Assembly (NCBI RefSeq): GCF_001983955.1
Contig: NZ_CP019562.1
Span: forward strand, 1,240,001-1,304,000
Source: Streptococcus oralis
GTDB taxonomy: Bacteria > Bacillota > Bacilli > Lactobacillales > Streptococcaceae
Direction: 5' to 3'
Length of the DNA: 64,000 nucleotides
A program made the translations under genes and the position numbers. Of this stretch, positions 27,857-39,298 are shown one piece after another (the first letter of the stretch is position 1; each line of letters begins with the position of its first letter). Below the pieces are notes generated by a model. It was not told the DNA's origin, did no database searches, and saw only the letters and a program-made list of their open reading frames with translations.

Positions 27857-29146
27857 TTATTGACGAAGTAAGTCAAGCATTTCATTATTAAGTGTTTGAT
27901 AACAAGAGAAATAGCTATCATCAATCTCAAATGTATCTTGTAAAATAAAGCGTAAGGTATCTATTGTCTGTTGCAATTTCTTTGAATTGACTAGTTTACT
28001 ATCAATCTCTGATAAGCCATGTGCCACCTTATTTCTCTCGCCATTTAAGCTATTTATTAGCTTTATGGACTTAAGTAATTCAGGAGAAACTTGATAATAA
28101 GATAGAATATTTTCATAAGACAAGAGATTTAAGGTTGACTGAGGTGAATAGATTCTTTCCTTCTCATCTTTTATACCCTTAGCTTTCTTAAATTCTAGGT
28201 CAATGAAATCTAAAATAGCTTCAAAATCCTTGTATTCTTCATTTAACTTTGGAAAAGTTCCGTCATATTTGATCAATTCTGGATAATCTTTCTTTATCTT
28301 TTCCTCGATGATAAATTCAACATAAGACTTTGATTTGATTAAGACATCAGCAACCTGCCCTCTCTCTTTCAAAACTTCAATCATTAAAAAGTAATTAAGA
28401 GCTTTTTTCTCAACCTCTGTAAGTGAATATCCCTGAATATCTTTTAAAATCGCTTGGGTTTTAAATACTTTTACAAAATCATTTAATAGTTCTCTTAAAC
28501 GAGCTAATTTCTTTTTAGAAAGTAATTTATTGTATTCTTTTCTAGTAATTAATTCTTCCGCAGCAAGATAATCATAAGAAGAGATTAAATTTCTTAAGTG
28601 GCGCTTGATAAGAGACTGGTTAAATTTTTCAGCTTCATCTTTGATTGTACGATCTTCGTAATCCTTTTGGTTATCCTCGTTCTCGTCAAAAAGCTTCTGT
28701 TCATCTTCACTTGACAGTGGTACATACTTTCTGTTTGCAGATTTGTTAGGAGTTGTAACCTGTATGGCCTGCGTATTATAATCATTAATTCGATTTAAGG
28801 CAAATAAAGCAGAAATAATCTGAGGTGTCCCTGAGGATAGATTTAAGATTAATTGATGATCTGTTCCAGAATATTTTTCAATAATCTGTCCCATCACTTC
28901 ATACATTTTATCAAACAGATAGACTTCATCATTTTTCAATATGATTGATTCAATAACCACTTTAGGATGATAACCCTCTATTGAACATAATGCTTTCTCA
29001 ACAAGATCTTTTTTTACTAACATTTCTTCACTATAAACCAAAACAATTTGTTCAGGTCTGTATGTTCGAGCAATATGTAATAAAGCTGCATCTCGATTAT
29101 TGCTTATCGGATCTGTCGTTCCAACTGCTGAAATCAAAATTTCCAA
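27857..29146 (-). CDS. csm6': Csm6-like CARF-HEPN ribonuclease, second copy
   Basis: Predicted ancillary RNase of the type III-A system, activated by cyclic oligoadenylate made by Cas10. The 429-residue protein begins with a CARF-type start, ILISAVGTTDPISNNRDAAL, and has LNLSSGTPQIISALFALNRI in the ligand-binding region. The C-terminal HEPN domain has an intact RX4H motif RNKVAH (residues 371-376; 28019-28036). It lies 16 bases after csm6 and is the last gene of the cas operon. It is AT-rich and clearly divergent from csm6, so this is an old duplication or a paired design as in Streptococcus thermophilus, not a recent copy. Confidence 0.9.
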   Translation of the reverse strand: MEILISAVGTTDPISNNRDAALLHIARTYRPEQIVLVYSEEMLVKKDLVEKALCSIEGYHPKVVIESIILKNDEVYLFDKMYEVMGQIIEKYSGTDHQLILNLSSGTPQIISALFALNRINDYNTQAIQVTTPNKSANRKYVPLSSEDEQKLFDENEDNQKDYEDRTIKDEAEKFNQSLIKRHLRNLISSYDYLAAEELITRKEYNKLLSKKKLARLRELLNDFVKVFKTQAILKDIQGYSLTEVEKKALNYFLMIEVLKERGQVADVLIKSKSYVEFIIEEKIKKDYPELIKYDGTFPKLNEEYKDFEAILDFIDLEFKKAKGIKDEKERIYSPQSTLNLLSYENILSYYQVSPELLKSIKLINSLNGERNKVAHGLSEIDSKLVNSKKLQQTIDTLRFILQDTFEIDDSYFSCYQTLNNEMLDLLRQ

Positions 29147-29162
29147 GATATTCTACCTCTCA

Positions 29163-30320
29163 TTATTTCAGTAATTCTAATAATTCCTTATTTAAGTCCT
29201 TGTAAAAATTAAAATCTTTCTCAGTGAGTTGATATTGTTCCTTGACTAGTCCTTTTAAGGTTTTTAGGACAGGACCTAACTGTTTTAATTCCTCAGAATC
29301 TAATGGATCCAATTTATGAGCTACAGTATTTCGTGTTTTGTTTATTTTCAAAATCGGTTTGATTTTGTAATACAATGTCCGATTTTTTATTTGAAGAATC
29401 TTATTATAATCCTGAATTCCGAGGTAATATTTCTCTGATTCATTCACGTAATTATCCAGAAATTCTGGATAACGATTTTCGATATAGTCTTCTAAGATAA
29501 ACTCTGTAAGGTTTTTAATTCTAATCAGACCTTCACTAAAATTACCACGTTCTTTTTGTAAATCAATAGTCAAATAAGCATTTAGTACTTTTTTCTGTTC
29601 TTCACTCCATTTTTTCTTTTGGAGGACTTGAGGTATATCTTGCCTATCTAATGAATCCACAATATCTTGTAACTTTTTGCGACAATCTTTCAATCCAGGG
29701 AAGTCAGGCAACTGATTTGCTATCTCTAAACTAGCTTTATAATCATATTTCTTAATAAAATCACGTAAAGTTTTTTTCATTAAGCCTTGTTTAAACTTAT
29801 CTGAAGTATCTTCAATAGTTCGATCGACATAGTCCTGCTTATTATCCATATTTGTATCAATTAGTACATCAATATCTTCCGAATCATCATGCCTAACGCC
29901 AGCATTCGATTTTTTTTCAGGACTTGGAACTTGTACTGCCTTGACATTGATTTCACTTAGTCTATTAAGAACAAATAAAGCTGATTTTATTTGAGGAGTT
30001 CCACTTGAAAGATTAAGAATAAATTCGTCGTCTTTTGTATAATACTCTTGTATAATAGCATCAAATTGATCAAACATGGTATCAAAAATATGTACTTCAT
30101 TGTTTAAAATGATTGGTTCATGGTATACAATCTCTGGGAGGTATTCAGAATCAATAGAACGAATTACTTTCTCAATATCATCTTTCTTACGAATCAGTTC
30201 CTCAGAAAAAACAATAATAATCTTATCTGGACGGTATTTTCTCGCAATATGTACTAAAGCTCCATCGTGAAAATTACGGATTGGATCCGTATTCCCCACT
30301 GCTGAAATCAAAACCTTCAT
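29163..30320 (-). CDS. csm6: Csm6 CARF-HEPN ribonuclease
   Basis: Cyclic-oligoadenylate-activated RNase of type III-A immunity. The 385-residue protein has the CARF start LISAVGNTDPIRNFHDGALV, the LNLSSGTPQIKSALFVLNRL segment and a C-terminal HEPN RX4H motif RNTVAH (residues 330-335; 29316-29333). The start overlaps the csm5 stop by 4 bases. It differs at many positions from the second copy downstream. Both catalytic motifs are intact, so the signalling arm of the system looks functional. Confidence 0.92.
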   Translation of the reverse strand: MKVLISAVGNTDPIRNFHDGALVHIARKYRPDKIIIVFSEELIRKKDDIEKVIRSIDSEYLPEIVYHEPIILNNEVHIFDTMFDQFDAIIQEYYTKDDEFILNLSSGTPQIKSALFVLNRLSEINVKAVQVPSPEKKSNAGVRHDDSEDIDVLIDTNMDNKQDYVDRTIEDTSDKFKQGLMKKTLRDFIKKYDYKASLEIANQLPDFPGLKDCRKKLQDIVDSLDRQDIPQVLQKKKWSEEQKKVLNAYLTIDLQKERGNFSEGLIRIKNLTEFILEDYIENRYPEFLDNYVNESEKYYLGIQDYNKILQIKNRTLYYKIKPILKINKTRNTVAHKLDPLDSEELKQLGPVLKTLKGLVKEQYQLTEKDFNFYKDLNKELLELLK

Positions 30321-31381
30321 TTAGTAATCTCCTTAATCATAAAGTTTGCCTTGCCCATCTCATAGAAAGACTCGTCATTCATTATCAATTTTCGGGTTGC
30401 TTGTGTTGTTTTAACACTTTTCATTGGTGCTTTTGTTAGTTTCAACACACCTTTTCCAACCATCTTAGTGGTTCTGCTATTCTGATAACGTTCTTGCAAA
30501 ATACCATTTGCTTGTTTAAAAATTGTTTTTGTCCAAGCTCCACTACCAGCACCCAAGTATATAGGATATTGAAGATTTGGCTGAATTTTATTTTCAGGAA
30601 AATCTGATAAGAAAAAGTTTTTATATTCTTTGTAAAAGGCTTGCGCTCTCTTTCCTAATTCCTCAATTAGGACTCCAGCTTCCTTAGTAGTTGTAGTAAT
30701 GGTGAAATTGATTTTAGTTAAGGGTGCGATCGCTTCCCTATATAAAGGTAGAGGCTTAGGAATAGGGGGCTTGACTTTATGATCCCATTTTTGAACTAAA
30801 ATAAGACTGGCATTGCTAAATGGTTTGCTATCACTAACACGAATAGCGTTAAACAAGTCATCATAGTTCTGCCCTTTTTTTGCTCCCCAAGGAATCAAAG
30901 ATTTGTTTTCCTTTTTATCTTGCAAAACATTTTTATTATTCCAGTCGGGATTGGTATTCATCAAAATAGTCCGAATAGCTCCCTTTAATGAACTTCCAGG
31001 AATATAGGGATTACCAAAAGGATCTCTTATAAACTTTGATACTTGATTTAATGCGCCTCCTCTTAAATAGTTATTATTTGTTTCTAACTTAGTTTCTATA
31101 ATTCTATAGCCACCAAAATTACGGTCAGAAATACGGTTATCTTCTAAAAAGGAAATCAAGCGATTATTTCTAGCGCTTGGCTTTGTCTCTTGTAAAAAAC
31201 GCTCAAACTTTTGATCGTAACCTTTCTCCACCATTCGATTATAAAACTTACCCATATCAGGGAAATAAAAGTACCCATTTTCATAGATAAATTCTCGAGA
31301 AGTATATTTTTCACCATTCCCAATATGGATAGGAGCCATAGCTAGGAGGCTGAATTGAAAGGTTCTATATTCTGTTTTCAT
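30317..31381 (-). CDS. csm5: Csm5 (RAMP subunit capping the Csm complex)
   Basis: Cas7-like RAMP subunit at the 3' end of the crRNA in the type III-A effector. The 354 residues begin with the typical FSLLAMAPIHIGNGEKYTSR and have the G-rich turn NPYIPGSSLKGAIRTILMN (~residues 123-141). The C-terminus has QNSRTTKMVGKGVLKLTKAP-like residues. It overlaps csm4 and csm6 by 4 bases each, consistent with strict co-translation. Confidence 0.93.
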   Translation of the reverse strand: MKTEYRTFQFSLLAMAPIHIGNGEKYTSREFIYENGYFYFPDMGKFYNRMVEKGYDQKFERFLQETKPSARNNRLISFLEDNRISDRNFGGYRIIETKLETNNNYLRGGALNQVSKFIRDPFGNPYIPGSSLKGAIRTILMNTNPDWNNKNVLQDKKENKSLIPWGAKKGQNYDDLFNAIRVSDSKPFSNASLILVQKWDHKVKPPIPKPLPLYREAIAPLTKINFTITTTTKEAGVLIEELGKRAQAFYKEYKNFFLSDFPENKIQPNLQYPIYLGAGSGAWTKTIFKQANGILQERYQNSRTTKMVGKGVLKLTKAPMKSVKTTQATRKLIMNDESFYEMGKANFMIKEITK

Positions 31382-32283
31382 CTTTCTCCCTCCATCTTGA
31401 AAAATAGTGGTTTAGCATAGTTTAATACTTCATGCGGGAAATCAAGAGGTCTTACATCCACAATCTGTCCTGTATAGGTTTCAGAGAAAGTAGATCCAGA
31501 AGCAAACTTATATAAATCCTGCTTACGGTAATTTTCCTTAGTTTCTGTACTAAAAGCAAAACCACTTGATTTACTTAGTAAATAGGAACCAGTTTCCATA
31601 GCATATTCAAGTTCCTTTTCAACTGGTAGAGAAGTTGTCAAGGTCATCACAGGTCCTTGATGGGCCTTGGTGAGACGATTTTTGAAGCTATCTGGTAAAT
31701 CTAATATAGTCAAATCAAATTGTCCATAACCACTGGAACGTTTGCCACCAATTCCTGTATACTGTAAGCTTGTCATAAGTTCATTTAATAGCTCAGACTC
31801 TTTAGCAATCACGTAAAGACAAGACTCATCTCTAAATCTAACGGTAGACACTTGGAAAAGATTTCCATCTACATGAGGTTGGTTTTTAGTGACGATATTT
31901 GTTACTGCATGATCTGCGTCTTTAAAAAGCGTTCCATTTACATAAGAATCAAATTTATCCAAAGGGATAAACTGAAGTTTCTTTGCCATTTTCGCTTGAC
32001 GTCTTACTTCTTTAACATCTGTTGTTAAGTCTGGCTGTTCAAACTTTGGAAATCCTATCGGTTTCGGTAAAAATGGACCTGACTGATAAGGAAAGGCATC
32101 AGTCAAAACAAAATCATCTTGACCCGCTGTTGACACGAATTCCTCCATTTTCCCCATTTTTTTTGCTTCTAAGACCAGAGCTGAAAACAAGCGGTCAGCT
32201 GCAAAAGTCATTTTAGAACTATCCAGACTACCTGCTCCAAAGTGAGCAGTATGGAAGTTCATAATATACATCTTATAGGTCAT
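31378..32283 (-). CDS. csm4: Csm4 (Cas5-like RAMP subunit)
   Basis: Binds the 5' handle of the crRNA and contacts Cas10 in the type III-A effector. The 301-residue protein starts MTYKMYIMNFHTAHFGAGSL and has the glycine-rich RAMP loop GIGGKRSSGYGQF around residues 180-192. It lies 1 base after csm3 and overlaps csm5. Confidence 0.93.
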   Translation of the reverse strand: MTYKMYIMNFHTAHFGAGSLDSSKMTFAADRLFSALVLEAKKMGKMEEFVSTAGQDDFVLTDAFPYQSGPFLPKPIGFPKFEQPDLTTDVKEVRRQAKMAKKLQFIPLDKFDSYVNGTLFKDADHAVTNIVTKNQPHVDGNLFQVSTVRFRDESCLYVIAKESELLNELMTSLQYTGIGGKRSSGYGQFDLTILDLPDSFKNRLTKAHQGPVMTLTTSLPVEKELEYAMETGSYLLSKSSGFAFSTETKENYRKQDLYKFASGSTFSETYTGQIVDVRPLDFPHEVLNYAKPLFFKMEGER

Positions 32284-32284
32284 A

Positions 32285-32947
32285 CTAGACCTCCGTAGTT
32301 AAAAGTTCATTCAATCTACTAACATTATAGTTTCCGAAAACTGTATTTGCTTTAAGATTCTCAAAAGCAACCTTACCATATCCACGAGAGCCTGAACCAC
32401 CTAAATAATCAAGTTCCAACAGTTTTAATCCATCAAGAATCACTTTGAAGTCTTCTTCTACTTGAGCTTGACTCTTGTCTGTCACCTCATAGATCAACTC
32501 AAATCCAAAGACACTGTCTCGGATGGCACGTTCAATTTGTCTTGGATTTGCTTCAGCAGTGATACGGTCAATAGTATTTTCAAACTTAACTTCAGTATAA
32601 CCTTTGACAGCTCGTGAATCTAAATCTTTTTTGTTAGTTAAAAAGGCATCTCTAAAAATGAGTCTTCCTACTTTATAGTCTTTGTTTGAACTATTCCCAA
32701 AGAGACGACTAATAATTTCCCCATCGTCTCCTGGTTTTTCTGCTAATGTAGTATTATATACTTTTGCCAGAAGGGTACGCATTTTCCCTTTGATACTAGA
32801 TCCTGGAATAATAGGTAAGTTTGTTATTGGATCTTTAATCACAGGTGAGTCCGTAGCACCAATCGCTGCAAAAGCATTGCTGGTCCCAATATGAAGTCCT
32901 GTCTCTAGACGGATTTGTGCTGTTACTTGAATTTTTGCAAATGCCAT
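32285..32947 (-). CDS. csm3: Csm3 (Cas7 backbone, target RNA nuclease)
   Basis: Forms the backbone of the type III-A complex and cleaves bound target RNA every six bases. The 220 residues include LETGLHIG, the catalytic Asp at residue 33 (AAIGATDSPVIKDP), LPIIPGSSIKGKMRTLLAK and the C-terminal GGSGSRGYGKV loop. Asp33 corresponds to the residue required for RNA cleavage in Streptococcus thermophilus Csm3, so RNA cleavage should be intact. It abuts csm2 and csm4. Confidence 0.95.
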   Translation of the reverse strand: MAFAKIQVTAQIRLETGLHIGTSNAFAAIGATDSPVIKDPITNLPIIPGSSIKGKMRTLLAKVYNTTLAEKPGDDGEIISRLFGNSSNKDYKVGRLIFRDAFLTNKKDLDSRAVKGYTEVKFENTIDRITAEANPRQIERAIRDSVFGFELIYEVTDKSQAQVEEDFKVILDGLKLLELDYLGGSGSRGYGKVAFENLKANTVFGNYNVSRLNELLTTEV

Positions 32948-33327
32948 TAATCGTTTCCTCCATAAAATTTAAAATAAGCTACTAGCGCTTCCATATAGCG
33001 ACAAAAACGTTGGAGACTTTCCCTACTATTAATTTCTTTTAAAATTGGTAAAATCTCACCTTTTTGAACTAAGTCCAGTACCGCCTCTTCACGGCCTGAT
33101 TGATAGACGAATTGGACCCTCAAATAGGCAATCTTATCCTTTAATTCTTCGTACTCACGGACCTTACTTTCATCAAAGAGGGTACTCGTTAAACTCAATA
33201 AGTTTCGTAGTTTACTCATGGATAGAACATCTGAATTTTTATTTTTAAAATTACGCTTATCAGTTACTAAATTTTTAATGGTTTTTTCTGCCTTATCTAC
33301 GTAATTATCATCTGTTAAAATTGCCAT
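32947..33327 (-). CDS. csm2: Csm2 (small helical subunit)
   Basis: The 126-residue alpha-helical small subunit lies along the crRNA-target duplex in the Csm effector. Its MAILTDDNYVDKAEKTIKNL start, central KLRNLLSLTS and LRVQFVYQSGREEAVLDLV match the family. It starts directly after the cas10 stop and overlaps the csm3 start by one base. Confidence 0.92.
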   Translation of the reverse strand: MAILTDDNYVDKAEKTIKNLVTDKRNFKNKNSDVLSMSKLRNLLSLTSTLFDESKVREYEELKDKIAYLRVQFVYQSGREEAVLDLVQKGEILPILKEINSRESLQRFCRYMEALVAYFKFYGGND

Positions 33328-35622
33328 CTATGAATCCTTTCTAATCTCATAAATATATAGAAGTAAAGCTATCTCTGCTTCCTTACGTTCATTATCGCTA
33401 CCTGTATACCAAGAAAAGAATAAATCTTTAAACTCTTTAAACTCTTCTTTTTTATCCTTAGAAGTTTGATCTTCTAAGCGCGTCAAATAATAGGCTAATC
33501 GAGCAATATTCATACGATCGTAGTTGCGAAGGAGCTCAATAAGTCTATATACAAAACTCTTTCCTCGCTCATCTTGAATATTAAAGTAGTAACGAATGCT
33601 CTTCAGTTTCCCATTATAGACATTGTCAATAAATTGGTCGAACTTCAATGTATAATTTCTTTCAGAATCAACATTGCCAAAAGATTGGTCCAACTTCAAG
33701 GTATTACCTGCTTTAAAAAGGGAAATACTATCCTTGTCGTTATCCTTTGCTGCTCCTTCTAGCTTACCAGTTTCTTCAGCCATGAGGCTAACTGGAGTTT
33801 TATCTGGAAAGAGGCCGATTCCTGCTGATAGGGTTAATTTGCCATTTGTCCACTTGATAAAGTTTTGTCGGAGACAAATAGTAAACTCAATAATATCCTG
33901 CCAAGAACCGATAGCAAATACATCATCTCCACCGGCATAAATGATCGATAGTTTTTTCTCCTTCGCAAACTGGTTGATATAGACCTTAAAGAAGAGACTC
34001 ATACTTCTAGAGAAGGTTGCCGAGCGTGCCAGAGTATTATATTTGCCACCATCTTGATAGGAGAATCCAGCCATAAAGGCTGCTCCAAGATCATCCACAT
34101 CTAGTCGAACAACTGCTAATCGCTTAATCCCTTGTCCAGTTTCACTATCCTGAGATAATTTGGCGTACTCGTAAATCTCATCATACTTGTAATCTCCGAC
34201 AAAGACATGGGTTGCTTTTAGGATATCTGTACTATAGCTATTCTTTACATAAATACGGTCCCACTCTTCATTGGCAAGGTCGGCTTTTGAAATACCACTA
34301 ATATAGGCTCCCGGACCTATCGGCAGGCCTTTTTCTTTTGTCACAATATAGTAGTTTTCTTGTATTTCCTTGGCAAAGCGATACATCCCTGCACAGATAT
34401 GGCAGACCTCTTGATCTTTATACTTGGTAAGCTTTTCGACTGAGTGACAAATTGCACATTCTTTCTGGGAGCTTTTTCCTCCTTGGTTGAGTTCAAGCAG
34501 AGTTTTGGCATCGTAACGAGAAATTTTCTTTTGGGAAATCATCCGACTAGTTGTTTGATAGACTTTTCGATAGTCGGCCAGTGTCGTTGTCATATCATTG
34601 GAAGAAAACGGACTCCAACCAAATGCTACGTACAAACCTGTCTGGAAATGCTTGACCAAAAACTCATTGAATTCTGCTTCAAAGTGAGCCAAGCTCTCTC
34701 TAGTTTTTTCGGTGTTTGGAAGGATAAAGTAGGCGTGCCCTCCACCAACGTAGAGAAGATTAGCCCTCGTAAGCTCTAACTTCTCCAGTAAGTTGTCAGC
34801 GATATGTTCCCCCATAAAATCTAGATACAAGGAACGTGCTTTTAGTTGCTTGGCTGCTCCAGCCGTTGCGATATTGTAGATAAAGTCTTGAATCCCTGAC
34901 AAGTCAAAACTTGCTAATAAAAAGGCCTTCTCGCTATAAAAAGCTTCTAAATCTTGCCCCAGTACCTTCTCATAGTCACGGCAATTCTTGTCTGCTAAAT
35001 AGTCCTCTATAGCTAGGGCAAAGCCAGCTGTCAGACGACTGTAGGTTGCTAGAGAAATATCCGATAATTCCTTGGTTCTTGTCGAAACAGGCACATAGGA
35101 AAGAGTAGACTCAAGGAGATTCAAAAGGGTATATATCTCAGATTGGCTAAAGTCCAATCTCTCAAACTCTTTTTCTAAGGTCTCTACTATCAAGTCATAA
35201 TCTGACTGGTCAGAAGGCTCACTCGATTCCTTAGCATAGTTTGGTTCCCCGTCAAGCTCTAATGGACGCACATCAAGATAACGCTTACTAGGGCTATCTG
35301 AAAATACATTGAAGATATCCGATTGTTTGCTTAGGAAATCTTCTTTACCTCCATGAGTGTCTGCTGCTCCTTTTAGACCTGAAGCAATCTTTGCAGCAGC
35401 TGACGTGATATAGACCAAACTATCAGGAGCTAAGTCCTTCGGCAAATCACTAGAAGTCGCCTTGGCTATCTGCTGGGCTATCTTTTCATTATCCGAAAAG
35501 CGTCTAAACCATTCGGACCCAATGGTACCCAGGTCTTTCTCATCACACCTGGAACCTTGAATCACCTTGCCGATAGCGTGCAAAAGCGATCCATAAACTA
35601 AATCAATCTTTTCTTTCTTCAA
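33328..35622 (-). CDS. cas10: Cas10/Csm1 with altered HD dyad (HA) and intact GGDD
   Basis: Large subunit of the type III-A effector. It normally combines an HD-type ssDNase with a cyclase making cyclic oligoadenylates. The 764-residue protein has an N-terminal GSLLHAIGKV. The metal-binding His15 is kept, but the usual Asp16 is Ala (GCT at 35575-35577). A CxxC...CxxC zinc element (ECAICHS, VCHICAG), the LASFDLSGIQDFIYNIATAG segment and the palm motif YAGGDDVFAIG (GGDD at residues 564-567; 33922-33933) are all intact. Otherwise it is very close to the family as I remember the Streptococcus thermophilus protein. The prediction is a cyclase that still signals, with the DNase disabled. It overlaps cas6 by 20 bases. 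Confidence 0.95.
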   Translation of the reverse strand: MKKEKIDLVYGSLLHAIGKVIQGSRCDEKDLGTIGSEWFRRFSDNEKIAQQIAKATSSDLPKDLAPDSLVYITSAAAKIASGLKGAADTHGGKEDFLSKQSDIFNVFSDSPSKRYLDVRPLELDGEPNYAKESSEPSDQSDYDLIVETLEKEFERLDFSQSEIYTLLNLLESTLSYVPVSTRTKELSDISLATYSRLTAGFALAIEDYLADKNCRDYEKVLGQDLEAFYSEKAFLLASFDLSGIQDFIYNIATAGAAKQLKARSLYLDFMGEHIADNLLEKLELTRANLLYVGGGHAYFILPNTEKTRESLAHFEAEFNEFLVKHFQTGLYVAFGWSPFSSNDMTTTLADYRKVYQTTSRMISQKKISRYDAKTLLELNQGGKSSQKECAICHSVEKLTKYKDQEVCHICAGMYRFAKEIQENYYIVTKEKGLPIGPGAYISGISKADLANEEWDRIYVKNSYSTDILKATHVFVGDYKYDEIYEYAKLSQDSETGQGIKRLAVVRLDVDDLGAAFMAGFSYQDGGKYNTLARSATFSRSMSLFFKVYINQFAKEKKLSIIYAGGDDVFAIGSWQDIIEFTICLRQNFIKWTNGKLTLSAGIGLFPDKTPVSLMAEETGKLEGAAKDNDKDSISLFKAGNTLKLDQSFGNVDSERNYTLKFDQFIDNVYNGKLKSIRYYFNIQDERGKSFVYRLIELLRNYDRMNIARLAYYLTRLEDQTSKDKKEEFKEFKDLFFSWYTGSDNERKEAEIALLLYIYEIRKDS

Positions 35623-36334
35623 GTTCTAAACCTCCCATCCCTAAGCTAGTTTTCATACCGAGACCTGAGTACTCCCCAAATTTTAGAAGCATATTAGCAT
35701 AAGCTTTCAAGGTATTTGGACCTGTAATCTTAAAGGTCAATTTCCCCCTGAAACCAGGTATTTTTTTGCCATGGACTTTAAAATAGCTGGATTCCAATCG
35801 ATAGCTGGTAACCCTACTATGCTTGACCAAGTAGTCCAGGGTTTCCTCTTCAATGTCCTGACGATTCTCGACCAGACGTGCATACTTCATCATCAAACTC
35901 TGAAAGATGAGACGCATGGTCGGAAAGAGCACGTACTCTCCCTGAGAGCGAAATCCTGTTGGAGTTTGAAAATGTATAGTGTAGAGTGACCGATCTTGGT
36001 TTTCATTAAAAAACTCAAAGAGTTGCTCCGAACTGAGATCTTGCATGGACAGAGACTCTACCATGAGAGTTGGTAAATCATGAAGTTCTACTTTCTTGAG
36101 CTCCAATAGAACTGGCAAAATCTGCTTGACAGCCTCATCCGTCAGGAGATGAAGGGACCATAGGGTCTTGTCCTTTTGATGGATGATTTTTAGTGAGTAG
36201 GGGTTGGTCTCCTGCTCATGTAGCCAAGTCACATAGTCTGGTTCCAAGTTTTCCATAAGAAAACCTTGGAATTTTGTAGATAGGTCGCTCGGTGATTGGT
36301 CAATCCGCTTAAATAATAGTTCGATGCGTTTCAT
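35603..36334 (-). CDS. cas6: Cas6 crRNA-processing endoribonuclease
   Basis: Cuts the precursor transcript within each repeat to leave an 8-base 5' handle. The 243-residue RAMP protein ends with the characteristic glycine-rich region (KFGEYSGLGMKTSLGMGGLE). AAGGAGG lies 5-6 bases before the ATG at 36334. It lies immediately downstream of the array on the same strand and overlaps cas10. It must act on strongly divergent repeats (see the array). Confidence 0.92.
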   Translation of the reverse strand: MKRIELLFKRIDQSPSDLSTKFQGFLMENLEPDYVTWLHEQETNPYSLKIIHQKDKTLWSLHLLTDEAVKQILPVLLELKKVELHDLPTLMVESLSMQDLSSEQLFEFFNENQDRSLYTIHFQTPTGFRSQGEYVLFPTMRLIFQSLMMKYARLVENRQDIEEETLDYLVKHSRVTSYRLESSYFKVHGKKIPGFRGKLTFKITGPNTLKAYANMLLKFGEYSGLGMKTSLGMGGLELEERKD

Positions 36335-36415: not shown

Positions 36416-38423
36416 GAAACTGTCCCCTCGCGAGGTAGATAGGTAGCTATACGAAATTTTCTTTAATATTTCTGGCGATTTTCAATCGTTTCCGGCCCCT
36501 CTCGAGGTAGATAGGTAGCTATACAAAATGGAAATTAACGAAAAAATAAGTGCGGTTTATGTTTCCGGCCCCTCGCGAGGTTGATAGGTGGCCATACACG
36601 TTGGCTTAAACATACCGACGGTAAATGGTATTAGCTTCCGTCCCCTCTCGAGGTAGATAAGGTATCTATACGGATGGTGGTGGGAGGAGTCTGATGGCTC
36701 TTATCCATTTCCGGCCACTCTCGAGGTAGATAGGTTCTTATACTTTATTTTAGCTACCCTATAGATTCGATAGAAAAAATAGTTTCCGGCCCCTCTCGAG
36801 GTGGATAGGTTCTTATAAAAATTCGAAAATCATGATAATCCACATAATCTTTAGTTTCCGGCCCCTCGCGGGGCGAATAGATTGTTCTACACGAAATATG
36901 GCATTTACAGATACACATGTACTTGGTGCGTTTCCGGCCCCTCTTGAGGTAGATAGGTTCTTATACGGAACTATACGAAGTATTTGATTTGAAAGACGTG
37001 TTTCCGTCCCCTCTCGAGGTAGATAGGTTCTTATACAAAAAGAAATTTAACGAAAGGAATTGGGTTGAACAGTTTCCGGCCCCTCTCGAGGTGGATAGGT
37101 TCTTATACAGAATCGCTCACTTGCATCACCGTCAGATATTCTACGTTTCCGGCCCCTCGCGAGGTGGATAGGTTCTTATACGGGAAGTCTCAAATTGGAA
37201 CTACTTCAACATCAACGTTTCCGGCCCCTCTCGAGGTAGATAGGTAGTTATAAAAGGAGTTGGAAGATGAATAAGCAGGAATTGATTGTTTCCGGCCCCT
37301 CGCAGGGTAAATAGGAGTCTATACTGCCATACCCACAAATGAAAATCGGATACGATTTCTTGTTTCCGGCCCCTCTCAAGGTAGATCGGTATCTATACAA
37401 AAACAGAAAAAATGGAGAAAGCAGCATGAACGAACAAGTTTCCGGCCCCTCGCGAGGGAGATAGGTGGATATACTTATGCTTAAATTTGTTCAAAGCATT
37501 GATTTTTCTGTTTCCAGCCCCTCTCGAGGGAGATAGGGGGCTATACGAATGACCGATTGAACAAGAACTTTGAGCGCTACCTGTTTCCGGCCCCTCGCGA
37601 GAAAGATAGGGAGATATACCGGCTCTATGCAAACTGGTTGGGTTAAATACTACGAGTTTCCGGCCCCTCTCGAGGTTGATAGGGAGCTATACAAAACCAT
37701 ACGTTGTAATCAAACCTTATGTTCCTGTTCCGTTTCCGGCCCCTCTCGGGGTAGATAGGGAGATATACACTGTGGAGCGGAAAGCTCTGATGTCGATATA
37801 GAATTGTTTCCGGCCCCTCGCGAGGTAGATAGGTAGCTATACACAAAGGAGATAGAGAGTGAACAAGGCTAAAGAGTTTCCGGCCTCTCTCGAGGTAGAT
37901 AGGTTCTTATACGCAGTAGCAGCAGTAGAAGTTGTTGAAAACAACGTAGTTGCGTTTTCGCCCCCTCTCGAGGTAGATAGGGAGCTATAAAAATGGTACT
38001 GGTTCGATGAGAAAGGGTACATGGCGTTTCCGGCCCCTCGCGAGGTAGATAGGTATATTTAAACAGTTTCTGATTTTGTAACAGAAACTCGTGTGGTCGA
38101 GTTTCCGGCCCCTCCCGAGGTAGATAGGTATCTATACTGGTTAAGGCTGGAGATAAGATTGCTAAAGGTTCTGCTTAGTTTCCGGCCACTCTCGAGGTTG
38201 ATATACACAATTTACAAATAACGCAATTGTTGCTGGCAACTTGTTTCCGGCCCCTCTCGAGGTAGATAGGTATCTATACGATGACCAACGTACAATCATG
38301 AACTTTATCCAGTTTCCGGCCCCTCTCGAGGTAGATAGGTATCTATACAAAATGGGTTGTTAACACTTCAAAACTTATACGTTAACGTTTCCGGCCCCTC
38401 TCGAGGTAGATAGGTATCTATAC
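36416..38423 (-). CRISPR. Type III-A CRISPR array: 28 divergent repeats (mostly 37 bases), 27 spacers (32-41 bases)
   Basis: Repeats start on the plus strand at 36416, 36488, 36561, 36634, 36707, 36782, 36854, 36930, 37000, 37072, 37145, 37217, 37288, 37362, 37438, 37510, 37583, 37656, 37732, 37806, 37876, 37954, 38026, 38101, 38178, 38243, 38312 and 38387. Read on the plus strand each begins GTTTCC and ends near TATAC; the transcribed (minus) strand ends in GGAAAC, the type III 5' handle. The array is therefore transcribed leftward, with the leader at 38424-38514. Only the three leader-proximal repeats are identical. Repeat 1 is badly eroded at its start, repeat 4 has 38 bases and repeat 25 only 29. 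A CCTC-GNRA-GGGG hairpin survives almost everywhere. Spacers are unique within the array as far as I could see. Confidence 0.97.
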
Positions 38424-38846: not shown

Positions 38847-39236
38847 TTATTCTCCTGTATAGCCTGTAACATAAAGTTCGGGTTTTAGACTCTCAAAAGC
38901 TCGAATCAATCCCTTAATTTGCATATCTGCCATATAGAAAAAAGTATAGCGTTTTTTGTCGACTTCGACATACTGATGGATTTCCAACATGCGCTCTCTC
39001 ATGGCCTGGATAAAAATCCTTCTCCCCTCCCCAGTAAAATAATAGACATTGACATTTTTCTTAGCTAGAACCCTAAGTAACTGTGTAGTTACCTGTGCTT
39101 GACCAAAAATCAAAAGGTTCTCTACTAAGTGAATAGAAATTTCTTTAACAATCTGACCTTGACCATTTTTTACGATAATCTTATGATTGTTAAGACACAG
39201 GAAATGGTTAGACTTTTGAACAAATAAATCACTCAT
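38847..39236 (-). pseudogene. cas1: cas1 remnant with a large internal in-frame deletion
   Basis: Full-length type III Cas1 is about 330 residues; this frame has 129. Residues ~1-72 read as a normal Cas1 N-terminal beta domain (MSDLFVQKSNHFLCLNNHKI, ENLLIFGQAQVTTQLLRVLA, VNVYYFTGEG). From about residue 75 the sequence jumps to IQAMRERMLEIHQY and RYTFFYMADMQIKGLIRAFE. I read this as the extreme C-terminal helices. The whole catalytic alpha domain with its Glu/His/Asp metal ligands is missing. The frame stays open across the junction. The ATG chosen follows AGGAGG by 10 bases; an upstream in-frame ATG would place that Shine-Dalgarno inside the gene. Confidence 0.82.
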
Positions 39237-39270
39237 CTCATAGATACCTCCTAAATGTATAAAGGATACC

Positions 39271-39298
39271 ATTTTATCATTAAAATTCCTTTTGTCAA
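39271..39298 (-). promoter_or_regulatory. Promoter of the cas1-cas2 end of the CRISPR-Cas locus
   Basis: On the minus strand: consensus -35 TTGACA (39293-39298), 16 bp, -10 TAAAAT (39271-39276) extended by TGA. It lies 35 bases before the cas1 ATG and after the potD terminator, so the locus has an independent promoter. Confidence 0.8.

What the first reader, a model, noticed from the sequence alone, without database searches (positions are those of the whole stretch)
35575..35580. Cas10 carries HA instead of the catalytic HD dyad
Residues 15-16 of the Csm1/Cas10 read His-Ala (CAC GCT) where the family has His-Asp. In Streptococcus thermophilus Csm the same residue (Asp16) is needed for single-strand DNase activity, and the laboratory change to Ala abolishes it. 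Here the loss appears natural, from a single-base GAT to GCT change. The cyclase GGDD (564-567) and the zinc element are intact. The system would keep RNA sensing and second-messenger synthesis without DNA cleavage.
Basis: partly seen in the sequence, partly recalled or inferred. Interest (0 to 1): 0.85.

Follow-up and report, generated by a model that had tools for sequence, protein, structure and literature searches.

The report
CRISPR alarm without its DNA cutter
A bacterial CRISPR defence in a lineage of mitis-group streptococci has lost most of the active site that would cut DNA, not just one residue, while the part that makes the alarm molecule and the RNA-cutting helpers it switches on look intact; loss of this cutter is already known in other bacteria, but here the steps of the loss can partly be read.

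Summary
In detail: Cas10/Csm1 (33328-35622, minus strand) reads His15-Ala16 at 35575-35580. The reading needs correcting: it is not one base change in an otherwise intact HD site. Of five positions (H15, D16, H31, H55, D77) invariant in 93 homologues with a Pfam HD domain, only H15 survives. The HA/HT state is found in 122 of 289 aligned rows, a mitis-group lineage. A sister group keeps His-Asp but lost the other three, so D16A was probably last. The domain is still predicted to fold but evolves under weaker constraint. Cyclase GGDD, zinc element, Csm3 D33 and two Csm6 HEPN motifs are intact; seven spacers match phages, all facing the transcript. Most likely: RNA sensing, cyclic oligoadenylate, Csm6 RNase, no Cas10 DNA cleavage (inferred; no biochemistry). 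HD-less Cas10 is published as common, about a third of III-A loci, so this is a new member of a known kind. Most novel lead: a related streptococcal clade whose Csm3 also carries D33N (6 of 6 genomes held), predicted to signal without cutting its targets.

The parts
33328..35622 (-). cas10/csm1, 764 aa, TTG start
   Evidence: best PDB hits are Csm1 chains of S. thermophilus Csm, E 4.2e-292; AlphaFold model against 9no4_A TM 0.95, rmsd 2.0
35308..35622 (-). N-terminal HD domain (residues 1-105), fold predicted kept, active site eroded
   Evidence: helices 3-13, 18-25, 31-40, 46-54, 69-81; residues 1-80 in blocks of mean pLDDT 81-96, residues 81-100 in blocks of 59 and 67; no Pfam HD match; pN/pS 0.38 against 0.095 for the rest
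35575..35580 (-). residues 15-16 His-Ala in place of His-Asp
35530..35532 (-). residue 31 Leu in place of invariant His
35458..35460 (-). residue 55 Ala in place of invariant His
35392..35394 (-). residue 77 Ala in place of invariant Asp
35371..35373 (-). residue 84 Lys in place of an Asp conserved in the HD-intact set
   Evidence: D in 93 of 93 HD-intact rows, K in 120 of 120 mitis rows
34393..34458 (-). zinc element C389-x2-C392 and C407-x2-C410, intact
33922..33933 (-). cyclase motif GGDD 564-567, intact
   Evidence: palm2 pN/pS 0.012
32947..33327 (-). csm2
   Evidence: Pfam PF03750
32285..32947 (-). csm3, D33 present
31378..32283 (-). csm4
   Evidence: Pfam PF17953
30317..31381 (-). csm5
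   Evidence: RAMP PF03787; gene order and tblastn in relatives
29163..30320 (-). csm6, first copy, CARF plus HEPN motif RNTVAH at 330
27857..29146 (-). csm6, second copy, HEPN motif RNKVAH at 371
35603..36334 (-). cas6
   Evidence: Pfam PF10040
36416..38423 (-). CRISPR array, 28 heterogeneous 37-nt repeats and 27 spacers; 7 spacers with phage matches examined, each facing the phage transcript
38515..38844 (-). cas2
   Evidence: Pfam PF09827
38847..39272 (-). cas1 remnant, 141 aa, internal part missing; the only Pfam Cas1 match in the genome
   Evidence: relative L005 has a 378-aa frame

Best explanation
This is a type III-A Csm system of mitis-group streptococci whose Cas10 HD nuclease was inactivated in a lineage ancestor by stepwise loss of its conserved site residues, D16A probably last. 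The complex still uses crRNAs to bind phage transcripts, still cuts them with Csm3, and still makes cyclic oligoadenylate at GGDD, which switches on two Csm6 RNases. Defence then rests on Csm6 (growth arrest protecting the population) and not on Cas10 cutting phage DNA. Shown here: the residue losses, their fixation across the lineage as sampled, intact cyclase, Csm3 and Csm6 motifs, weaker constraint on HD than on the rest, spacers facing phage transcripts. Inferred: that the five positions are the metal site, absence of ssDNase activity, cOA synthesis, growth-arrest immunity, and the order of the losses.
For: H15, D16, H31, H55, D77 are invariant in 93 of 93 homologues with a precomputed Pfam HD domain; 102 of 289 aligned rows are HDHHD. 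In 122 of 289 rows position 15-16 is HA (121) or HT (1) and none of these keeps H31, H55 or D77. A sister group of 8 rows (L012, P0120, P0219, P0220, P0222-P0225) keeps H15-D16 but lost the other three; three representatives of each fall in one clade at 100/99. GGDD is kept in 121 of 122 HA/HT rows, the other having a gap there. Within seven genomes pooled pN/pS is 0.384 (bootstrap 0.186-0.794) for residues 1-105, 0.095 (0.070-0.124) for the rest, 0.012 for palm2. Csm3 D33 is kept; two Csm6 frames with R-x4-H in each of 7 mitis loci. Seven distinct spacers match phage genomes and in 7 of 7 the annotated phage genes there run opposite to the crRNA. A staphylococcal Cas10-HD mutant defends only through Csm6, at population level (PMC11708336 section 9); D16A abolishes StCsm ssDNase (PMC7469701).
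Against: No activity was measured. The HD fold is predicted to remain, and H15 plus conserved acidic residues (D27, E28, D30, E37 in 121-122 of 122 rows; at 28 and 30 HD-intact rows mostly have R, 96 of 102, and K, 99 of 102) could in principle hold a metal. HD pN/pS is below 1, so something still constrains the domain; part of its rise comes from a lower pS there (0.098 against 0.173), pN alone being 0.038 against 0.017, and against the outgroup L012 the ratio is only about twofold (0.148 against 0.071) with saturated dS. In L002 the open part of the second csm6 is only 287 aa against 429 in the window. The order of loss is parsimony on unlike residues (I/L/F/V against A/V/S at 31), so parallel loss in the two sister groups is not excluded. 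The 289 rows hold duplicates and come from the best 120 of each of three searches, not an even sample.
Confidence: 0.82

Rival explanations
1. The locus is simply decaying: HD loss, the cas1 remnant and uneven repeats are stages of pseudogenisation and the system no longer works.
For: cas1 is internally deleted and is the only Cas1 match in the genome; cis cas1 is broken or absent in 7 of 17 HD-lost genomes; repeats are heterogeneous (26 distinct of 28).
Against: The rest of Cas10 is under strong purifying selection, palm2 pN/pS 0.012; csm2 to csm6 frames are open in the window; 7 of 7 phage-matching spacers examined face transcripts; repeats are also heterogeneous in relatives whose cis cas1 is whole, L003, L005 and L022; HD-lost Cas10 is found in several species.
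Confidence: 0.1
2. The HD domain keeps or regained a nuclease through another metal site built from other conserved acidic residues.
For: Fold predicted kept; E28 and D30 are conserved in 121 and 122 of 122 HA/HT rows where HD-intact rows are mostly basic; some constraint on the domain remains.
Against: Four of five invariant positions are gone and H15 is the only histidine conserved in over 95% of HA/HT rows over residues 1-110; constraint is weaker than in the rest of the protein.
Confidence: 0.06
3. The HD domain is kept as a structural or allosteric part (complex assembly, anti-tag sensing, cOA control) with no catalysis, and that is why it still folds. This refines the best explanation and does not compete with it.
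For: Predicted fold with blocks of pLDDT 81-96 over residues 1-80; pN/pS below 1.
Against: Nothing here measures such a role; the need to stay soluble would also keep the fold. Clade 2 has a shorter domain there.
Confidence: 0.5
4. Sequencing error or a single-strain mutation.
Against: Alanine in 121 of 122 HA/HT rows from many sources and in 7 of 7 mitis genomes by codon.
Confidence: 0.01

Closest known systems
Streptococcus thermophilus type III-A Csm (StCsm; PDB 6nud, 6ifn, 9no4)
   Same: Same kind of operon, Cas10 aligned end to end, TM 0.95 to 9no4_A, GGDD, zinc element and Csm3 D33.
   Different: The S. thermophilus protein P0188 keeps H15 D16 H31 H55 D77, and StCsm is an active ssDNase (PMC7469701, PMC11040160 passages); here four of the five are replaced.
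StCsm Cas10 D16A and staphylococcal Cas10-HD laboratory mutants
   Same: Cyclase kept, DNase site broken; immunity of the staphylococcal mutant rests on Csm6 only (PMC11708336; PMC7469701).
   Different: Natural, found across a lineage, with the other conserved positions gone as well.
HD-less Cas10 of other type III loci (no recognisable HD in 35% of III-A and 61% of all type III, from the counts in PMC11229360)
   Same: Cyclase without a recognisable HD nuclease, with a cOA effector at the locus.
   Different: Here an HD fold is still predicted and an intermediate of the loss can be seen in a sister group.
[quoted passage not shown]
   Same: Reductive loss of part of the catalytic set; Cas7 aspartates not conserved, as in clade 2 here.
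   Different: Opposite direction: they keep an apparently active HD and lose the cyclase; these streptococci keep the cyclase and lose HD.

Membership tests
Type III-A (Csm) CRISPR system | cas10/csm1 with csm2, csm3, csm4, csm5, cas6 in one operon | tested here: met
Type III-A (Csm) CRISPR system | Cas10 close to solved Csm1 in sequence and fold | tested here: met
Type III-A (Csm) CRISPR system | CRISPR array with spacers against mobile elements, facing transcripts | tested here: met
   7 of 7 phage-matching spacers examined run opposite to the annotated genes; in two (H57, H93) the match overlaps a gene end
Cas10 with an active HD nuclease | H15, D16, H31, H55, D77 (StCsm numbering) | tested here: not met
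   only H15 present
Cas10 with an active HD nuclease | Pfam HD domain PF01966 detected | tested here: not met
   above cut-off in P0188 and L013, below it in P0120, not listed for the window protein, P0217 or L016 at E up to 1
Cas10 with an active HD nuclease | target-activated ssDNA cleavage | not testable with these tools
   needs purified complex
cOA-signalling Cas10 with Csm6 effector | GGDD and palm DxD motifs | tested here: met
   D508, D510, G564-D567 invariant in 34 rows
cOA-signalling Cas10 with Csm6 effector | CARF-HEPN Csm6 with R-x4-6-H beside the operon | tested here: met
   two copies, (Pfam was run on the first copy only)
cOA-signalling Cas10 with Csm6 effector | cOA made and Csm6 activated | not testable with these tools
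   needs biochemistry

The most novel reading that the evidence does not exclude
Streptococcal III-A systems include a line of descent towards a pure RNA-guided alarm: first the Cas10 DNase is dismantled (the window's lineage), and in a related clade Csm3 target-RNA cleavage is lost too (D33N in 6 of 6 genomes held), leaving a Csm complex that cuts nothing itself, only makes cyclic oligoadenylate for Csm6, and lacks the usual off-switch of target cleavage. In such systems with broken cas1 the spacer memory may be renewed by recombination between arrays of different species, single spacers moving with the adjoining repeat halves.
Probability: 0.4. Interest if true: 0.75.

Novelty: new member of a known kind. 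Interest (0 to 1): 0.45.

Why it matters
In staphylococci the Cas10 DNase helps cells recover from Csm6 growth arrest and keep their spacers (PMC11708336, summary and section 9 seen). A lineage that seems to do without it naturally, yet carries phage-matching, transcript-facing spacers, would let one test whether type III immunity can persist as population-level growth arrest alone. The clade with Csm3 D33N would, if confirmed, be a natural signalling-only complex, useful for asking how cOA output is shut off when target RNA is not cleaved.

Tried and rejected
Single-base, strain-specific loss as the cause: rejected. Read error: rejected. Compensatory changes in the repeat hairpin of the uneven repeats: four stem pairs tested in eight arrays, no excess over shuffles. 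Ligand-targeted (rather than diffuse) loss: of eight comparisons, P0217 against each of two neighbours changes 4 of 5 ligand positions but 2 of 26 equally conserved ones (one-sided Fisher p 0.002, not corrected); window against P0120 gives p 0.04, but three of those four positions were already lost in P0120; the other five are not significant. I do not claim it generally. Link between HD loss and cas1 damage: cis cas1 broken or absent in 7 of 17 HD-lost genomes (window, G131, G121, G065, G106, G020, G024) against 0 of 7 HD-intact ones; by hand calculation one-sided Fisher about 0.056; the genomes are not independent and in-frame stops in draft genomes may be errors, so only a lead. One origin of all streptococcal HD losses: mitis plus clade 2 fall on one side of a branch at only 77/70, undecided; P0217, P0221 and L066 look separate, though the quick tree warns that L066 joins another long branch.

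Literature: my statement that I saw no description of HD loss in mitis streptococci, or of natural Csm3 D33 loss together with HD loss, rests on the listings (listings are capped; one search showed 15 of 94, 15 of 60). PMC10123807 (diversity of Cas10 proteins) was asked for and is not held, so it is unread. For array recombination one search was made (10 of 104 listed); a review of spacer dynamics (PMC8047081) is in that listing with 20 uses of 'recombination', unread, so I claim no novelty for that observation.

Rows dropped: the tree left out 13 of the 47 representatives; the spacer-pair test used 20 of the 30 cross-array matches listed, leaving out partial or chained ones, and the 20 are not all independent; the hairpin test used distinct repeats without N; two searches listed 40 and 60 of 106 phage records; the Csm3 sweep read 30 loci, from genomes of which 47 of 398 were over the cut-off. 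L019 was wrongly cut and replaced by L031 of the same genome.

Full report
WHAT IS THERE. The minus-strand gene 33328-35622 encodes a 764-aa Cas10/Csm1 with a TTG start; residues 15-16 are His-Ala, CAC GCT, at 35575-35580. Its closest solved relatives are Csm1 chains of the S. thermophilus Csm structures. On the minus strand the locus reads cas1 remnant, cas2, array, cas6, cas10, csm2, csm3, csm4, csm5, csm6, csm6. GGDD is at 564-567 and the zinc element at 389-410.

IT IS NOT ONE RESIDUE. I aligned 289 Cas10 rows: proteins listed by three searches, which show their best 120 of 487, 2997 and 384 hits, plus loci from genomes; some rows are the same protein from two sources. Positions H15, D16, H31, H55 and D77 (StCsm numbering, which the window shares up to there) are the same residue in 93 of 93 homologues with a precomputed Pfam HD domain. 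That they form the metal site is inferred from this invariance and from the D16 literature; I did not read a structure. The window has H15, A16, L31, A55, A77; D84, also invariant in those 93, is K. States over the 289 rows: 102 intact HDHHD; 122 HA or HT with none of the other three kept; 8 dyad-only (H15-D16 kept, the others lost); 50 otherwise lost; 7 lacking the N-terminus. Pfam HD is over its cut-off in P0188 and L013, below it in the dyad-only P0120, and not listed for the window protein.

A LINEAGE, AND AN ORDER. Named members include S. oralis, S. mitis and S. infantis contigs and a S. australis protein (P0097). In the genus, 17 of 284 genomes gave a Cas10 match. Trees built without the HD columns put HA and dyad-only representatives together at 100/99, with S. 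thermophilus and other intact sequences outside. The simplest order is loss of H31, H55 and D77 first and D16A afterwards; since the replacing residues differ between the two groups, parallel loss remains possible. A second HD-lost clade (L014-L018, L020, L021, L031) carries HN, YN or CS at the dyad and a shorter domain; whether it shares the same loss is undecided (77/70). P0217 and P0221 lie among intact sequences and look like separate losses, as does L066 from another family of the order (where it joins a long branch).

SELECTION AND FOLD. Across seven genomes of the lineage pooled pN/pS is 0.384 (bootstrap 0.186-0.794) in residues 1-105 against 0.095 (0.070-0.124) in the rest and 0.012 in palm2. 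Part of this is a lower pS in the HD stretch (0.098 against 0.173); pN is 0.038 against 0.017. Against the outgroup L012 the ratios are 0.148 and 0.071, with saturated dS. As a protein-level control the HD-to-rest distance ratio is 0.99 among 20 HD-intact representatives, 1.40 among 12 HA ones and 1.34 among 3 dyad-only ones. The AlphaFold model (34-row alignment, mean pLDDT 85) keeps HD helices with confidence and matches 9no4_A at TM 0.95. So the domain looks like a folded, less constrained remnant beside a strongly constrained cyclase.

WHAT STILL WORKS, AS FAR AS SEQUENCE TELLS. GGDD is kept in 121 of 122 HA/HT rows, the remaining one having a gap; the four zinc cysteines in 121 of 122. 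Csm3 D33, whose change to Ala abolishes target RNA cleavage (PMC7469701, passage), is present. Two Csm6 frames with R-x4-H are found in each of seven mitis loci, though in L002 the second is open for only 287 aa against 429 in the window. Seven distinct spacers of the window array have phage matches among the rows listed (60 of 106 records); for one match of each I looked at the annotation. In 7 of 7 the phage genes run opposite to the crRNA, taken as the cas strand with GGAAAC before the spacer; in two (H57, H93) the match overlaps gene ends. Targets include SM1 gp56 (called endolysin in NC_004996.1), a LytA-type hydrolase, a minor capsid gene and a hyaluronidase gene. Seven of seven in this direction has a chance of 1 in 128.

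MECHANISM. In staphylococci a Cas10 HD mutant still protects, but only through Csm6 and at population level, and the double mutant without Csm6 activity does not (PMC11708336, section 9 read). By analogy this lineage should sense phage RNA, make cOA, activate Csm6 and arrest, without Cas10 clearing phage DNA. The biochemical steps are inferred.

THE RELATED CLADE. In six of six genomes held with the HN-type Cas10 of clade 2 (L017, L021, L028-L031) Csm3 reads GATNNP instead of GATDSP, that is D33N; the other 18 of 24 loci compared, the window included, have D33. In a sweep of the phylum 29 of the 30 loci read have D, the window's own among them, and one has E. The clade's csm3 is under constraint (pN/pS 0.22), GGDD is kept in all 50 rows classed as otherwise lost, and the four clade-2 loci scanned for it have one Csm6 with a HEPN motif. 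In StCsm the RNase-dead form keeps cutting ssDNA where the wild type switches off (PMC11040160, passages); carrying this over to cOA is my inference. So these complexes are predicted to signal without cutting. It is one clade and probably one event, and L014/L015-type members (L026, L027) keep D33, so this is not evidence of a general link. The array of L028 matches 76 phage records, each named as a Streptococcus phage.

WHAT IS KNOWN ALREADY. A count of 1113 type III loci found a recognisable HD domain in 39%, and in 65% of III-A (PMC11229360, passages). HD loss in Cas10 is therefore common and the window's system is a new member of a known kind. I saw no description of this lineage or of the double loss in the listings; one relevant paper is not held.

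LIMITS. No biochemistry; uneven sampling; the order of loss, the metal-site assignment and the growth-arrest mechanism are inferences.

Noticed in passing
38847-39272, minus strand: cas1 is cut to 141 aa by an internal loss (relative L005 has 378 aa) and no other Pfam Cas1 match was found in the genome, so spacer acquisition in this strain is probably off; cas1 and cas2 are missing beside the array in L002, L004 and L023.
   Followed up: partly
36416-38423 and arrays of L002-L005, L022-L024, L026, L028-L030: Single spacers are shared between species at unlike places in the arrays. Over 20 of 30 listed pairs the repeat parts touching the shared spacer are alike (downstream 1-17: 35 differences against 92 expected; upstream 30-37: 8 against 21) while far parts are nearer chance (upstream 1-17: 72 against 92; downstream 30-37: 18 against 21), as if spacers move by recombination inside repeats.
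   Followed up: partly
L017, L021, L028, L029, L030, L031: Csm3 D33 is N in 6 of 6 genomes held of a related HD-lost clade; of 30 phylum-wide Csm3 loci read, the window's own included, 29 have D and 1 has E.
   Followed up: yes
L066 (G505): A genome of another family of the order has HD lost (YNSHN), GGDD kept and no csm6 found in the 14 kb read: output unclear.
   Followed up: no
L068 (G547): Cas10 with intact HD positions but EGDD in place of GGDD.
   Followed up: no
L076: One Csm3 of the phylum sweep has Glu at the D33 position.
   Followed up: no
35533-35541, Cas10 residues 28 and 30: E28 and D30 are conserved acidic residues in the HA lineage where HD-intact homologues mostly have R and K.
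   Followed up: no
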